The position numbers and the translations under genes are program-made. The notes beneath the pieces are model-generated. The model worked only from the letters and a program-made list of their open reading frames with translations. It ran no database searches and was not told the origin of the DNA. This document shows positions 36,711 to 40,984 of a stretch of 45,894 bases of DNA, one piece after another. This DNA is from an uncultured Lachnospiraceae bacterium (lineage in GTDB: Bacteria; Bacillota; Clostridia; Lachnospirales; Lachnospiraceae). Within the stretch, counting starts at the first letter, position 1; every line of letters begins with the position of its first letter. The stretch lies in assembly GCA_902775555.1 (NCBI GenBank), contig CACYMQ010000007.1, positions 1 through 45,894 on the forward strand. The letters are read 5' to 3'.

Positions 36711-38660
36711 TCAGTACCGGAGATACAGCATGATCTGTGTCACATCCGCAGGAGATACACCGGAGATACGGGAAGCCTGCCCGATCGACCGGGGCCGTAT
36801 CTCCTCCAGCTTCTGACGCGCTTCCTTCCTGAGGTTCCGGATCTCTCCGTAGTCCAGATCTGCAGGGATCCTTTTCTCCTCCATTTTCAGAAAATGTTCC
36901 ACCTGCTGTTTCTGTCGTTTGATATAGCCCTCATATTTTATGGAAATGTTGATCTGCTCCGCCACCTCATCCGTTACGCCTTCTGACGGCCGATCCGGAT
37001 CCAGCGGCTCCAGCGTTTCATAGGAGAATTCCGGTCTTCGGAGCAGGTCCGCAAGCGTTACGCCTGTATGAAGCGGTGCACTGCCGTGGGATTCCAGAAA
37101 TGCCTGTGTCTCCTTCGAAGCTCCGATGGGAGTACTCTCCAGGCGTTTGATTTCCGACTCGATCCGCTGCTTCTTCTCCAGGAAGCGCTGGTATCTGTCC
37201 TCCGGGATCAGCCCGATCTCATAACCGATGGGGGTAAGCCGGAGGTCGGCATTGTCCTGCCTGAGAAGCAGACGATATTCTGCACGGCTGGTCATCATCC
37301 GATAAGGCTCCTTCGTCTCCTTTGTCACCAGATCGTCGATCAGAACGCCGATATATCCGTCGGACCGGGACAGAACGACAGGTTCCTTCCCCTGCAGTTT
37401 TCGCGCGGCATTGATCCCCGCCATAAGGCCCTGCGCTCCCGCTTCCTCATAGCCGGAGCTTCCGTTGATCTGGCCTGCGGCAAAAAGGCCCTCCACTCCC
37501 TTGAATTCCAGAGACGGACGAAGCTCCGTAGCGGAAATGCAGTCATACTCGATGGCATAGGCATTTCGAACGATCTTCGCGTGTTCAAGCCCCGGAACGG
37601 AATGGACCATACGGTACTGCACATCCTCCGGAAGAGAGGAGGGCATGCCGTCGAGGTACATTTCATCCGTGAATTCACCTTCCGGTTCGATAAAGAGCTG
37701 ATGACGGTCCTTATCCGGGAACTTCATGATCTTATCCTCGATGGAAGGACAGTACCGGGGGCCGGTTCCCCGGATCACGCCGGAGTACAGGGGGGAACGG
37801 TCGATATTTTCCCGTATGATCTGATGCGTCTCCTCATTCGTATAGGTGAGCCAGCAGGAGATCTGCTCTCTGGCGATATCCTCTGCTTTATTCTCAAAGG
37901 AGAAGGGAACAATCTTCTCATCTCCCTTCTGCTCCACGGTCTTGGAAAAATCAATGGATTTCCGGTCGATCCTGGGCGGGGTACCCGTCTTAAACCGCCG
38001 GATCCCGATCCCGGTATCCGCCATGGAATCCGAAAGATGATTGGCTGCCGAAAGCCCGTTGGGGCCGGTGTAACTGATGGTGTCTCCGTAGATACAGCGT
38101 GCCTTCAGGTAAACACCGGTGCAGAGGATCACTGCCTTCGCATGATAAACGGCTCCGGAACAGGTGCGGACGCCAACGACTTTCCGGGCATTCCGGGGTG
38201 CGGTCGGTGTAAGGTCCTTCGCGTTATTCAGGGGTGCATCGTCTGCGGTATTCTGCGCTGCCGGTTCCACCAGGAGTTCCGTCACCTCCTGCTGTCTCAG
38301 GGTCAGCTTCGGCTCCCGCTGCAGGGTGCGGCGCATTTCCTTGGTGTACTCTCCCTTATCCGCCTGTGCGCGGAGGGAATGTACCGCCGGCCCCTTGGAC
38401 ACATTCAACATTTTAGACTGGATGTAGGTCTTATCGATATTCTTCCCCATCTCTCCGCCCAGGGCATCGATCTCCCGGACCAGATGGCCCTTGGAGCTGC
38501 CTCCGATATTGGGGTTGCAGGGCATCAGCGCCACGCTGTCCATGCTCACCGTAAAAAGGATGGTTTCAAATCCCAGCCTGGATGCGGCAAGCGCCGCCTC
38601 ACAGCCGGCATGTCCCGCGCCGACAATAACGATATCATATGTTTCTTCTACATGCGTCAT
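36711..38660 (-). CDS. mnmG: tRNA uridine 5-carboxymethylaminomethyl modification enzyme MnmG
   Basis: This 649-residue FAD enzyme acts with MnmE to add the (carboxymethyl)aminomethyl group to U34 of certain tRNAs. Signatures are the dinucleotide site [78 protein letters not shown] and [27 protein letters not shown]. The C-terminal helical domain ends [15 protein letters not shown] polar insertion of about 25 residues (around 134-160) interrupts the usually short loop after VTELLV. GGAG nine bases before ATG 38660 is present. mnmE lies upstream on the same strand as expected, but is separated by 477 bp of repeats and A+T-rich DNA, and rsmG does not follow, which is unlike the classical arrangement. 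Confidence 0.97.
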
Positions 38661-38690: not shown

Positions 38691-38809
38691 TACTATTCAC
38701 AACCACCTCTCCGACCGCAGCCCATCCGTGCTCCGCAGATCACATAGAACCGATTGCGATTTTGCGTGCAAGCACGCAATCGCTCGGTCCTATTTGATCG
38801 TGAATAGTA
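38691..38809. repeat. 119-bp element bounded by 10-bp inverted repeats
   Basis: TACTATTCAC (38691-38700) and GTGAATAGTA (38800-38809) are exact inverted copies. The interior contains CCGACCGCAGCCCATCCG, which aligns with the element at 27126-27300, and a long hairpin centred on GCGTGCAAGCACGC. It is probably a small non-autonomous dispersed repeat. Confidence 0.65.
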
Positions 38810-38818
38810 ACTCTTACT
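38800..38818. repeat. Left direct repeat flanking the A+T-rich segment
   Basis: GTGAATAGTAACTCTTACT matches GTAAATAGCCACTCTTACT at 39124-39142 in 16 of 19 positions, at an offset of 324 bp. The right copy contains the mnmE stop codon. Confidence 0.7.
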
Positions 38819-38838
38819 GGTTATTTTATGATTCATGG

Positions 38839-38867
38839 TTGACAATCGAACTGTTGTTCGATATAAT
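38839..38867 (+). promoter_or_regulatory. Consensus promoter with LexA box in its spacer
   Basis: TTGACA (38839-38844) and TATAAT (38862-38867) are perfect hexamers 17 bp apart. The spacer is the palindrome ATCGAAC-TGTT-GTTCGA(T), which fits the Firmicutes LexA site CGAAC-N4-GTTCG exactly (38847-38860). LexA bound here would block RNA polymerase until DNA damage. On the opposite strand TTGTCA (38887-38892) and TATTAT (38863-38868), 18 bp apart, form a second promoter towards mnmG that would share the same operator. Confidence 0.75.
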
Positions 38868-38873
38868 ATATTT

Positions 38874-39110
38874 GTATATAGTTCATTGACAAGTTAAGAT
38901 ATGCGGTTTCTATCACAAATTTGATCTATATTACTTAGATTTCCTTGATAGTGTAAAATCTTAAAGGTATATAGGCTGAAACTGAACAAAGGCCAACTCA
39001 CTATATACAAATCACTATATAAGTAGCCTGAATTAGATCAGGTAGAGGCATCAGGCTAGTGCCATTAAAAGACCGGAATGATGTAATTTATTTCGGGAAT
39101 TTATCAATAT
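38874..39110 (+). ncRNA. Candidate SOS-regulated small RNA
   Basis: Downstream of the LexA-box promoter no open frame exceeds a few codons, yet ordered structure is present. TAGCCTGA (39024-39031) pairs either with TCAGGCTA (39051-39058) or, through CCTGA, with TCAGG (39038-39042), so two exclusive hairpins are possible. CACTATATA occurs twice (38999-39007, 39013-39021). CCGGAA/TTTCGG forms a last hairpin near 39073-39095. The RNA would run towards the mnmE 3' end in antisense orientation. Both ends are guesses; no strong terminator is visible. Confidence 0.4.
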
Positions 39111-39137
39111 CAACCATGAGTTGGTAAATAGCCACTC

Positions 39138-40616
39138 TTACTTGCCCATGCAAAATTCCGCAAAGATTTTATCCGCCAGGTCGTCCTCCAGGGTTTCTCC
39201 CGTGATACGGCCAAGGGCTTCATAGGCTGCCAGCAGATCGATGGTATAGAAATCCTCTCCCACGCCTGCCTCCAAACTGTCCTCCACACGCCCGAGGGCT
39301 TCGTCCGCATCGGAAAGCGCTTCTGTATGGCGCGCATTCAGCAGGTAGGTCTCCTGGCTGTCGGAAAGCGTTCCGGCAAAGAAGAGTCCACGGACAGCTT
39401 CTGCCAGGCTGTCTCTTCCCTCTCCCGTTGCCGCGGAGATTTCCAGCACGCGGGTAACAGGTGTATCCGAACCGGACTTCCAGGTCTCCAGCTTCTGTTC
39501 TATCTCAGGAACGGAAACCACGGTCGCAAGATCATTTTTATTCAACAGGATCAGAATGGGCGCTGCTTCATTTCTTCCGGAGAGTTCCGCCCCGTCTTCC
39601 GGACCTTCCGCCTCCGGACGTTCTCCCGTCAGACTCCGGAGTAAGGCCTCATCCTCTTCTGACAAGGCCTCGGCCGCATCAATGACCATCAGGATCAGGT
39701 CTGCGGTCTCCAGGGCCTCCTTTGCCCGCTTCACACCGATCTGCTCCACCACATCCCGTGTTTCACGGATTCCCGCCGTATCGATCAGTACCAGCGGTAC
39801 ATCTCCCAGTATGGCCTTCTCCTCCAGTGTATCCCTGGTGGTTCCGGCGATCTCCGTCACGATGGCCCGCTCCTCTCCCAGAAGAAGATTCAGAATGGAG
39901 GACTTCCCGGCATTCGGGCGTCCCACTATAGCGGTGCGGATCCCGGTCCGAAGCAGACGTCCTTCCCGTTCTCCTGCCAGCAGCCGGCGGATCCTTAACC
40001 TGCTCTCCTCCAGAATGGGGCGGATCCTGTCCCCATAGTTCTCCAGAGTATAATGCTCCGGATCATCCAGAGCGGATTCAATATATGCCGTCTCATAAAG
40101 AAGCTTCTCTCTCAGCTCCGTCACCGCATTTCGAAGACTTCCCCGAAGCTGCCGGAGGGAAGCTTCCAGAGCCCTGTCGGATTCCGCCGCGATCACATCC
40201 ATGACCGCCTCAGCCTCCGAAAGGTCGATCCGTCCGCCGAGATATGCTCTCCGGGTAAATTCACCGGGCTCCGCCAGACGTGCCCCTGCCTTCAGCGCTT
40301 CCTCCAGTACACGATGCAGCACCAGAGGACCTCCATGGCAGGAAAGCTCCACCACATCCTCCGTTGTATAGGTGTGGGGTGCCCGCATGACCAGAGCGAT
40401 GACCTCATCCAGCGCCTCGCCCTCCGACGGACCGTTTACCTTCACCAGCTGTCCGTAGGCTGCGGTATAGGTATTCATTTCCGACAATCTGCGCTTTCCG
40501 CGGAACATGCGGTCTGCGATCCCGATGGAATCCGGGCCGCTGAGCCTGACGATACCGATACCGGCACTTCCCGTTCCCGTTGCTATGGCGCAAATGGTGT
40601 CCTTTTCCGAAATCAT
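39138..40616 (-). CDS. mnmE: tRNA modification GTPase MnmE
   Basis: This 492-residue GTPase is the partner of MnmG in U34 modification. It has an N-terminal tetrahydrofolate-binding domain (DTICAIATG ... GIGIVRLSG), a helical domain, a G domain with GRPNAGKSS (232-240), DTAG and NKND, and the C-terminal CMGK ending, where the conserved Cys is present (usually CIGK). The G domain has a long acidic insertion (SLTGERPEAEGPEDGAEL ...) before the NKND motif, making the protein about 35 residues longer than usual. GGGAGG seven bases before ATG 40616 fixes the start; upstream in-frame sequence overlaps the neighbouring gene. The stop codon lies inside the right 19-bp direct repeat. Confidence 0.97.
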   Translation of the reverse strand: MISEKDTICAIATGTGSAGIGIVRLSGPDSIGIADRMFRGKRRLSEMNTYTAAYGQLVKVNGPSEGEALDEVIALVMRAPHTYTTEDVVELSCHGGPLVLHRVLEEALKAGARLAEPGEFTRRAYLGGRIDLSEAEAVMDVIAAESDRALEASLRQLRGSLRNAVTELREKLLYETAYIESALDDPEHYTLENYGDRIRPILEESRLRIRRLLAGEREGRLLRTGIRTAIVGRPNAGKSSILNLLLGEERAIVTEIAGTTRDTLEEKAILGDVPLVLIDTAGIRETRDVVEQIGVKRAKEALETADLILMVIDAAEALSEEDEALLRSLTGERPEAEGPEDGAELSGRNEAAPILILLNKNDLATVVSVPEIEQKLETWKSGSDTPVTRVLEISAATGEGRDSLAEAVRGLFFAGTLSDSQETYLLNARHTEALSDADEALGRVEDSLEAGVGEDFYTIDLLAAYEALGRITGETLEDDLADKIFAEFCMGK

Positions 40617-40627
40617 AATGCCTCCCG

Positions 40628-40984
40628 TCAAATGTCGATCCATCCGAGACCGAAGCAGATACCTCCCAGGACCACCACCTTCAGGCAATCCCACCATTTG
40701 CTTCTGTGCCAGATCTTCGTCGGATGTTTCGGGTTCACAAGGATCGAATGGGTTCCTTCCTTCTTCCACCCCTTGGCATGGATGCGGGCTTCGATCTCAT
40801 ACCGATGACCGTCCACGGAATAACGAAGGACCGGCTGCTTCACGGAACCGATCCCCGGCCGGTGTTTGACAAGGTCCACCATTCGTGCTTCCACCGGTTT
40901 GGAACAGCCGAAACGTTCTGAAAGTGTAAGAATGAGCTGCAGAAGGATCACGATCCCTCCCAGCGCCATCATAATGATTCTCAT
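40628..40984 (-). CDS. Small two-helix membrane protein, DUF3592-like
   Basis: This 118-residue protein has an N-terminal helix (about 5-21), a central beta-rich part with VEARMVDLV ... PVLRYSVDGHRYEIEARIHAKGWKKEGT and NPKHPTKIW, and a C-terminal helix (about 100-116). The pattern resembles DUF3592 proteins, whose function is unknown. AGGAGA precedes ATG 40984. It ends 11 bp before mnmE and is co-transcribed with it from an extended -10 promoter (TGCTATAAT at 41032-41040). Confidence 0.75.
   Translation of the reverse strand: MRIIMMALGGIVILLQLILTLSERFGCSKPVEARMVDLVKHRPGIGSVKQPVLRYSVDGHRYEIEARIHAKGWKKEGTHSILVNPKHPTKIWHRSKWWDCLKVVVLGGICFGLGWIDI

What the first reader, a model, noticed from the sequence alone, without database searches (positions are those of the whole stretch)
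38839..39110. LexA-controlled consensus promoter driving a gene-free, structured A+T-rich segment
The promoter has perfect -35 and -10 hexamers at 17 bp, and its spacer is a perfect CGAAC-N4-GTTCG site. Such a strong promoter under tight SOS control should make an abundant damage-induced transcript, yet no open frame of more than a few codons follows. Two mutually exclusive hairpins and repeated CACTATATA motifs suggest a functional RNA. The transcript would run antisense into the mnmE end, linking DNA damage with tRNA U34 modification, or it may be a remnant of a mobile element.
Basis: partly seen in the sequence, partly recalled or inferred. Interest (0 to 1): 0.78.

Follow-up and report, generated by a model that had tools for sequence, protein, structure and literature searches.

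The report
DNA-damage-switched mobile guide-RNA unit
The stretch is a 315-base mobile element that carries only a promoter of the DNA-damage-controlled kind and what looks like the guide RNA of a transposon-borne, CRISPR-like nuclease (TnpB), so DNA damage may switch on an RNA that points a nuclease at the element's own insertion site.

Summary
Window 38819-39133 is a 315-bp non-autonomous transposon (MITE) with imperfect terminal inverted repeats and a 9-bp target duplication, at the stop codon of mnmE. Own genome and relatives hold further copies and autonomous parents: an IS1595-family transposase followed by a TnpB (RNA-guided nuclease) gene. The MITE keeps the parent's left end (a promoter with a LexA-type box in its spacer) and its last 111 bp, which overlap the tnpB stop codon, vary in a compensatory way in 35 distinct sequences and end in a hairpin 8 nt before the flank. 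That is the anatomy of a TnpB guide RNA (omegaRNA); the guide would be the flanking chromosome. All 44 distinct left ends, picked by their repeats, hold GAACNNNNGTTY; host recA and lexA carry that box too. All 51 distinct left flanks have TAA exactly 8 or 9 bp from the element; its mirror image stands at 10 of 46 right flanks: a candidate target-adjacent motif. Transcription, LexA binding and cleavage were not tested, and no intact tnpB is assembled in this genome. An unrelated TnpB family in the genus also has the LexA-type promoter. The tRNA-modification link is not supported.

The parts
38810..38818 (.). left copy of the 9-bp target-site duplication ACTCTTACT
   Evidence: identical to 39134-39142
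38807..38810 (+). GTA|A, candidate target-adjacent motif (TAA, with TA ending just before the TSD)
   Evidence: TAA at 8 or 9 bp in 51 of 51 distinct left flanks
38819..38842 (+). left terminal inverted repeat
   Evidence: 25-nt arms 38818-38842 / 39110-39134, 76% complementary
38839..38867 (+). promoter TTGACA-17-TATAAT shared with the transposase promoter of the autonomous parents
   Evidence: parents
38847..38860 (+). LexA-type operator CGAAC-TGTT-GTTCG in the promoter spacer
   Evidence: a GAACNNNNGTTY box is present in 44 of 44 distinct left ends (32 in the spacer, 12 just after the -10)
38869..39022 (+). MITE-specific inner RNA domain, no significant match to the autonomous elements; 13-bp perfect inverted repeat 38870-38882/39000-39012
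38945..38973 (+). possible second promoter TTGATA-17-TATATA (weak; the C14 copy has TATAAT)
   Evidence: read from the sequence; not reported
39023..39133 (+). presumed omegaRNA scaffold of the TnpB family (same as the 3' end of tnpB plus right end in the parents)
39110..39133 (-). right terminal inverted repeat; contains the last hairpin of the scaffold
39134..39142 (.). right copy of the target-site duplication; covers the mnmE stop codon
39134..39153 (+). presumed guide (flanking DNA read after the right end), antisense to the end of mnmE
   Evidence: inferred from TnpB guide rules (PMC8612924, passages)
39138..40769 (-). mnmE (neighbour)
   Evidence: TIGR00450, 337 bits, cut-off 252.6
36711..38660 (-). 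mnmG (neighbour)
   Evidence: TIGR00136, 859 bits, cut-off 524.85

Best explanation
A non-autonomous IS1595-family element (MITE) that works as a mobile, LexA-controlled guide-RNA unit. SHOWN by sequence: element, copies, parents with IS1595 transposase + TnpB, shared promoter and operator, shared 111-nt structured right end, target duplication and oriented TAA motif. INFERRED: LexA represses the promoter; on DNA damage an RNA of about 260 nt plus flank is made; TnpB from an autonomous copy binds the last 111 nt as its omegaRNA; the flank (ACTCTTACTTGCCC...) is the guide; the RNP cuts the empty site, where TA|A stands beside the target, and spares the filled site, where the element's own GCC stands there instead; repair from the element-bearing sister restores the element. 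Transposase, nuclease and guides would thus be released together by DNA damage.
For: Own genome: seven further strong matches at E up to 1.3e-14 (C14, C31, C20, C45, C15, C35, C63). Parent in G002: transpos_IS1595 156 bits (cut-off 75), guided_TnpB 149 bits (cut-off 100) (Pfam). 35 TnpB relatives in clostridial genomes and MAGs; transposase sequence, whole or partial, in 30 of 35 loci. 21 of 21 full-length tnpB frames checked are open. The predicted fold matches Cas12f and TnpB structures (E 4e-13 and 4e-11). The MITE's match to the G002 parent starts at the scaffold start GTAGCC. Covariation: 45 cells changed on both sides against 19.3 shuffled; 92.1% of cells pair against at most 42.3% when slid. 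The last hairpin ends 8 nt before the flank; Nety et al. report a hairpin within 10 nt of the scaffold's 3' end in almost all orthologs (PMC10278001, section 13). LexA box: in 44 of 44 distinct left ends, with 26 different central tetramers among the 32 spacer boxes. The seven CGAACNNNNGTTTG sites of the own genome are recA, lexA, a yneA-like LysM gene, two copies of this element and two TnpB genes. Target motif: 51 of 51 left flanks against 10 of 46 right flanks.
Against: No expression, binding or cleavage data. In the own genome the one readable autonomous copy (C4) has a broken transposase frame and an N run, and only the first 123 tnpB codons before the contig ends; 14 short contigs held no tnpB. 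The RuvC-II glutamate is replaced by G324; only a shifted E371 remains, and the zinc-finger cysteines are gone, so nuclease activity is not assured. Helix 1 of the pseudoknot has no double change. Of 29 elements with both ends located 10 show no exact target duplication (L097 among them is cut by the contig end). tnpB is interrupted or partly missing in L097, L106, L107 and L110. IS1595 transposase is found in 3 of 61 genus genomes, the RNA in 9 of 61. No Rfam match in this stretch.
Confidence: 0.66

Rival explanations
1. Ordinary MITE: the retained right end serves only as a cis site for the transposase and the promoter is a leftover; the RNA has no function in this copy.
For: The right end contains the TIR; no intact tnpB is assembled in the own genome; MITEs usually arise by internal deletion (recalled).
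Against: The variable hairpin changes sequence while keeping pairs, which a DNA-binding site would not be expected to do; the two ends are complementary over 25 nt only; the match to the G002 parent begins at the scaffold start (to L090 it begins 13 nt earlier); MITE copies keep the operator.
Confidence: 0.24
2. The GAACNNNNGTTY box is bound by another protein (the transposase or another host repressor) or is an anti-readthrough hairpin, not a LexA site.
For: 10 of 32 left ends with the spacer box hold a second box at +58/59 that could pair with the first in readthrough RNA.
Against: The two tetramers often do not match each other; 22 of 32 have no second box in the 75 nt looked at; recA, lexA, a yneA-like gene and uvrA carry the box in these genomes (recA named and lexA, the others by my reading); an unrelated TnpB family has it too.
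Confidence: 0.1
3. The TAA motif is the target preference of the IS1595 transposase and not the motif read by TnpB.
For: It is present in 51 of 51 sites, cleaner than selective retention alone should give; in IS200/IS605 both proteins share the motif (PMC10278001, section 14).
Against: The asymmetry is unusual for a symmetric DDE synapse (inference); two TnpB-less IS1595 relatives with a TSD have TTT|A and GTT|A (n = 2).
Confidence: 0.35
4. Cis-antisense or trans small RNA that links DNA damage to mnmE and tRNA U34 modification.
For: The transcript would enter the mnmE end in antisense.
Against: The element is mobile and sits in many unrelated places, so that no pairing with mnmE can be conserved across copies.
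Confidence: 0.03

Closest known systems
ISDra2 TnpB-reRNA of IS200/IS605 (PMC8612924, abstract and passages)
   Same: RNA from the right end of the transposon guides TnpB next to a transposon-associated motif; guide = flanking DNA; proposed role is to restore the element at the empty site
   Different: there a TnpA 'peel and paste' element (no TIRs or TSD: recalled); here a DDE IS1595 transposase, TIRs, 8-9 bp TSD, a LexA-type promoter, and a guide unit separated from its nuclease
Fanzor in eukaryotic DNA transposons with TIRs and TSDs (PMC10711439, passages)
   Same: TnpB relative carried by a cut-and-paste element; a rearranged RuvC-II glutamate is described for related TnpBs
   Different: eukaryotes and their viruses; the non-autonomous SfAV element still encodes its Fanzor protein; no LexA control is mentioned in the passages seen
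IS1595 family insertion sequences
   Different: carries TnpB and its RNA; no title or abstract start in the listings describes this pair
LexA-controlled ISCR transposases (PMC13393415, abstract and section list); IS50/Tn5 (recalled)
   Same: SOS control of an IS transposase
   Different: no RNA-guided nuclease or guide-RNA MITE is mentioned in what I saw
TnpB clades with rearranged RuvC-II (RII-r3/r5; PMC10278001, sections 13-14 and passages)
   Same: displaced RuvC-II glutamate; one RII-r5 ortholog cleaves DNA
   Different: the study left out TnpBs linked to transposases other than Y1 or serine types; the clade of the present family (NAD-x-N in RuvC-III) was not determined here

Membership tests
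IS1595-family MITE | terminal inverted repeats shared with an autonomous IS1595 element | tested here: met
IS1595-family MITE | 8-9 bp target-site duplication | tested here: met
   this copy 9 bp; 19 of 29 elements with both ends located have an exact duplication of 8 or 9 bp
IS1595-family MITE | no transposase gene of its own, several copies | tested here: met
TnpB omegaRNA (OMEGA) system | TnpB gene of the guided_TnpB family in the parent element | tested here: met
   (L063, L188); Pfam OrfB_IS605 and Cas12f1-like_TNB; fold
TnpB omegaRNA (OMEGA) system | RNA overlaps the tnpB 3' end and runs to the right end of the element | tested here: inconclusive
   the conserved structured DNA does; the transcript itself was not seen
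TnpB omegaRNA (OMEGA) system | hairpin within 10 nt of the guide | tested here: met
   columns 87-103 of 111
TnpB omegaRNA (OMEGA) system | fixed motif beside the target in the left flank | tested here: met
   TAA in 51 of 51; whether TnpB reads it is untested
TnpB omegaRNA (OMEGA) system | intact RuvC D-E-D | tested here: inconclusive
   D232 and D412 invariant in 19 of 19 aligned; canonical E replaced by G324, displaced E371 invariant
TnpB omegaRNA (OMEGA) system | RNA-guided cleavage | not testable with these tools
   needs an assay
LexA regulon | GAACNNNNGTTY operator overlapping the promoter, as near host recA and lexA | tested here: met
LexA regulon | LexA binding and induction by DNA damage | not testable with these tools
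   needs gel shift and RNA-seq
Rfam families | match to a curated model | tested here: not met
   no match in this stretch at the gathering score (two tRNAs elsewhere in the window) nor at E up to 1

The most novel reading that the evidence does not exclude
DNA damage fires a distributed RNA-guided network: one LexA signal releases transposase, TnpB and many scattered, protein-free guide-RNA MITEs, each aimed at its own empty site, so that elements are copied back exactly when breaks and excision make them vulnerable. Two unrelated TnpB families in this genus came under LexA independently, which would make SOS control a general way of running TnpB elements.
Probability: 0.45. Interest if true: 0.88.

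Novelty: new variant of a known kind. Interest (0 to 1): 0.78.

Why it matters
TnpB is regarded as the ancestor of Cas12, and when it acts in its transposon is little known. A DDE element with TnpB, an oriented target motif, protein-free guide units and an SOS switch would tie nuclease timing to DNA breaks and sister-chromosome repair, and gives a ready experimental system (guides in trans, natural target sites, natural inducer).

Tried and rejected
Rejected: tRNA-modification regulator (element is mobile); known Rfam RNA (none in this stretch); phage or plasmid origin (no match in those collections); inner MITE domain as a deleted piece of the parent (best E 0.30 against six autonomous elements and the incomplete C4 copy); anti-readthrough hairpin as the reason for the box (tetramers often do not match). 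My first left-end scan (79 rows) mixed in right ends; it was redone (45 rows, 1 dropped, L043, a chance match). My first right-flank scan caught only 7 ends and was redone (46). One search listed 18 elements with TSD, with a wider filter 19. The 35 right ends of the alignment were picked by a pattern that fixes parts of the core and the last bases, so conservation at those columns is partly built in; the variable hairpin is not in the pattern. The control for TAA in IS1595 elements without TnpB rests on 2 elements (10 loci looked at); the genus search gave only the three genomes that hold this family. Papers: ten searches; in the listings no title or abstract start describes an IS1595-TnpB pair, a LexA-controlled TnpB or a protein-free omegaRNA MITE. 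Five papers hold both words IS1595 and TnpB and were not opened. PMC11061315 was searched for six terms without a hit. Only open-licence PMC papers are covered, and the TnpB classification study cited as reference 8 by PMC10278001 was not read.

Full report
1. Observation. TTGACA-17-TATAAT lies at 38839-38867, with CGAACTGTTGTTCG at 38847-38860 in the spacer. The bare box is no more frequent than chance: 2 sites with up to one mismatch in the window against 1.37 expected; genome-wide, 2 places for CGAACNNNNGTTCG against a reversed control of 1 + 1 and 7 for CGAACNNNNGTTTG against 4. Joined to a -10 it is: 8 against 0 in the own genome, 39 against 0 in 61 genus genomes. No + strand frame of 30 codons or more lies wholly inside the segment, and a repeated CACTATATA unit is present.

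2. It is a transposon. Flanks and ends read ...GTGAATAGTA-ACTCTTACT-GGTTATTTTATGATTCATGGTTGA ... TCAACCATGAGTTGGTAAATAGCC-ACTCTTACT-TGCCC: a 9-bp duplication around a 315-bp element with ends that are 76% complementary over 25 nt. The 351-bp query has 19 matches in its own genome at E up to 10, itself included: copies in C14 (85%), C31 (74%) and C20 (two pieces), right ends at the contig ends of C45, C15 and C35, a partial copy in C63, left ends in C10, C4 and C89, a fragment in C18, a promoter match in C1, and weak rows that look like chance. Of 99 genomes searched with the DNA, the own included, 16 have a match at E up to 0.01, the weakest probably by chance. A covariance model of the right end finds 9 of 61 genus genomes and 3 of 391 in a sample of the class, the own included; both calls used strict filters.

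3. The parent. In G002 (one contig) a 2626-bp element has the same left end, an open 360-codon frame of the IS1595 transposase family (156 bits, cut-off 75) and an open 442-codon TnpB (guided_TnpB, 149 bits, cut-off 100). A scan of genome contigs with that TnpB gave 35 loci at 59-100% identity; the record titles name Lachnospiraceae, Eubacterium, Saccharofermentans, Ruminococcaceae, Candidatus Scatonaster and unnamed Clostridiales or Clostridia. tblastn finds transposase sequence in 30 of the 35, often truncated or broken; L085, L098, L101, L103 and L104 show none, the last four because the locus begins inside tnpB. All 21 full-length tnpB frames checked are open, some behind truncated transposases. 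The rest were not in that check: most are cut by a contig end, and L097, L106, L107 and L110 have interrupted or partly missing tnpB. Since the loci were found by tnpB, this is not an unbiased sample.

4. What the MITE keeps. Its first 50 or so bp match the parents' left end and its last 111 bp their right end; the bases between give no significant match (best E 0.30) to six autonomous elements and the incomplete C4 copy. The right-end match to G002 begins at GTAGCC, the last codons of tnpB (to L090 it begins 13 nt and to L102 2 nt earlier). Among eight full MITEs of two size classes the inner part is recognisably shared.

5. The RNA. 35 distinct right ends, picked by a pattern that fixes part of the core and the last bases, were aligned. 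A structure of 30 pairs, pseudoknot included, is formed in 92.1% of cells (shuffled 87.9; slid versions at most 42.3); 45 cells changed on both sides (shuffled mean 19.3, 0 of 500 as high) and 9 pairs have such a change (8 of 500 shuffles as high). The changes lie in the variable hairpin (6 pairs), the last hairpin (2) and helix 2 (1); helix 1 is nearly invariant and gives no support by covariation. I drew the structure from these same sequences, which favours it. RNAalifold alone preferred another pairing of the first 21 nt and a small covariation term (-0.65). The last hairpin ends 8 nt before the flank, the one feature that Nety et al. found in almost all omegaRNAs (PMC10278001, section 13).

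6. The nuclease. The AlphaFold2 model (mean pLDDT 74, pTM 0.62) matches Cas12f and TnpB structures. D232 and D412 are invariant in the 19 proteins aligned and align with RuvC-I and RuvC-III aspartates; at the canonical RuvC-II glutamate stands G324, and an invariant E371 stands before the former zinc finger. A rearranged RuvC-II glutamate is described for TnpBs (PMC10711439, passage), and one RII-r5 ortholog cleaved DNA (PMC10278001, section 14). Activity here is untested.

7. The switch. Of 44 distinct left ends, chosen by TIR similarity and not by the box, 32 have GAACNNNNGTTY at one fixed place in the spacer and the other 12 (one TIR type) at +56, just after the -10; none lacks it. The middle tetramer takes 26 forms in the 32. 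(That GAAC and GTT do not vary within the 32 follows from how they were sorted.) The own genome's lexA (240.8 bits) has CGAACATCCGTTTG upstream, recA has CGAACGTATGTTTG, a yneA-like LysM gene has CGAACGGTTGTTTG (name by resemblance). Of the 39 sites in the genus, by my reading of the sequence and downstream frames, 23 belong to this element, 11 to another TnpB family, 2 to uvrA, 1 to a UvrD/PcrA-like helicase and 2 to other genes.

8. The target motif. In 51 of 51 distinct left flanks TAA stands with its TA ending exactly 8 (32) or 9 (19) bp before the element (L043 dropped). The right flanks all begin with A (46 of 46), but the mirror motif at 8 or 9 bp is seen in 10 of 46. So the motif is oriented with the element and lies where a TnpB motif should lie: immediately 5' of the sequence that the RNA would read as its guide. 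In the filled site the element's end (GCC) replaces it. Exact duplications of 8 or 9 bp were found in 19 of 29 elements with both ends located. Two TnpB-less IS1595 relatives have TTT|A and GTT|A and no operator, too few to separate transposase from TnpB preference.

9. At this locus. mnmE and mnmG are named by NCBIfam; the insertion keeps the mnmE stop codon inside the duplication. The presumed guide begins ACTCTTACTTGCCC. No terminator-like site was found. Whether the window genome has a working TnpB is open: only its first 123 codons are assembled, the readable transposase copy is broken, and 14 short contigs (13 whole, C82 9000 of 9587 bases) held no tnpB.

10. Verdict. My odds: mobile-element identity about 0.97; omegaRNA identity of the 111 nt about 0.88; LexA control about 0.85; active guide in trans about 0.6.

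Noticed in passing
G000 C54:14472 (L168) and C55:112 (L169); L146, L147, L153, L154, L165-L167 and others: A second, unrelated TnpB family (L167: guided_TnpB 299 bits; IS200_TnpB 348 bits, under its cut-off of 425) has the LexA-type box in its promoter at 11 sites of the genus.
   Followed up: partly
same loci: The central four bases of the LexA box differ between copies more (0.56 per site in 11 copies; 0.63 in 5 of them) than third codon positions of tnpB in those 5 copies (0.25), while GAAC/GTTY do not differ, as the search pattern demanded (L166 left out of the coding part). Only four sites, ungapped comparison; unexplained.
   Followed up: partly
G000 C1:36519 (L068); G002 C1:386775 (L141): The same LexA-type promoter stands before a small cysteine-rich protein gene and before a secreted protease-like gene (named by my reading).
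   Followed up: no
L077, L078, L081, L010, L012, L013, L074, L080, L082, L106: Ten of 32 spacer-box left ends have a second LexA-type box at +58/59, in several just before a GGAGG-like stretch ahead of the transposase frame.
   Followed up: partly
window 38870-38882 and 39000-39012: A 13-bp perfect long-range stem encloses the inner domain of the MITE RNA; the shorter MITE class appears by eye to form a different stem at the same place.
   Followed up: no
L083, L084, L085, L087, L088, L094, L108: Elements with a truncated or missing transposase but a full open tnpB and RNA end: a middle form between the parent and the MITE.
   Followed up: no
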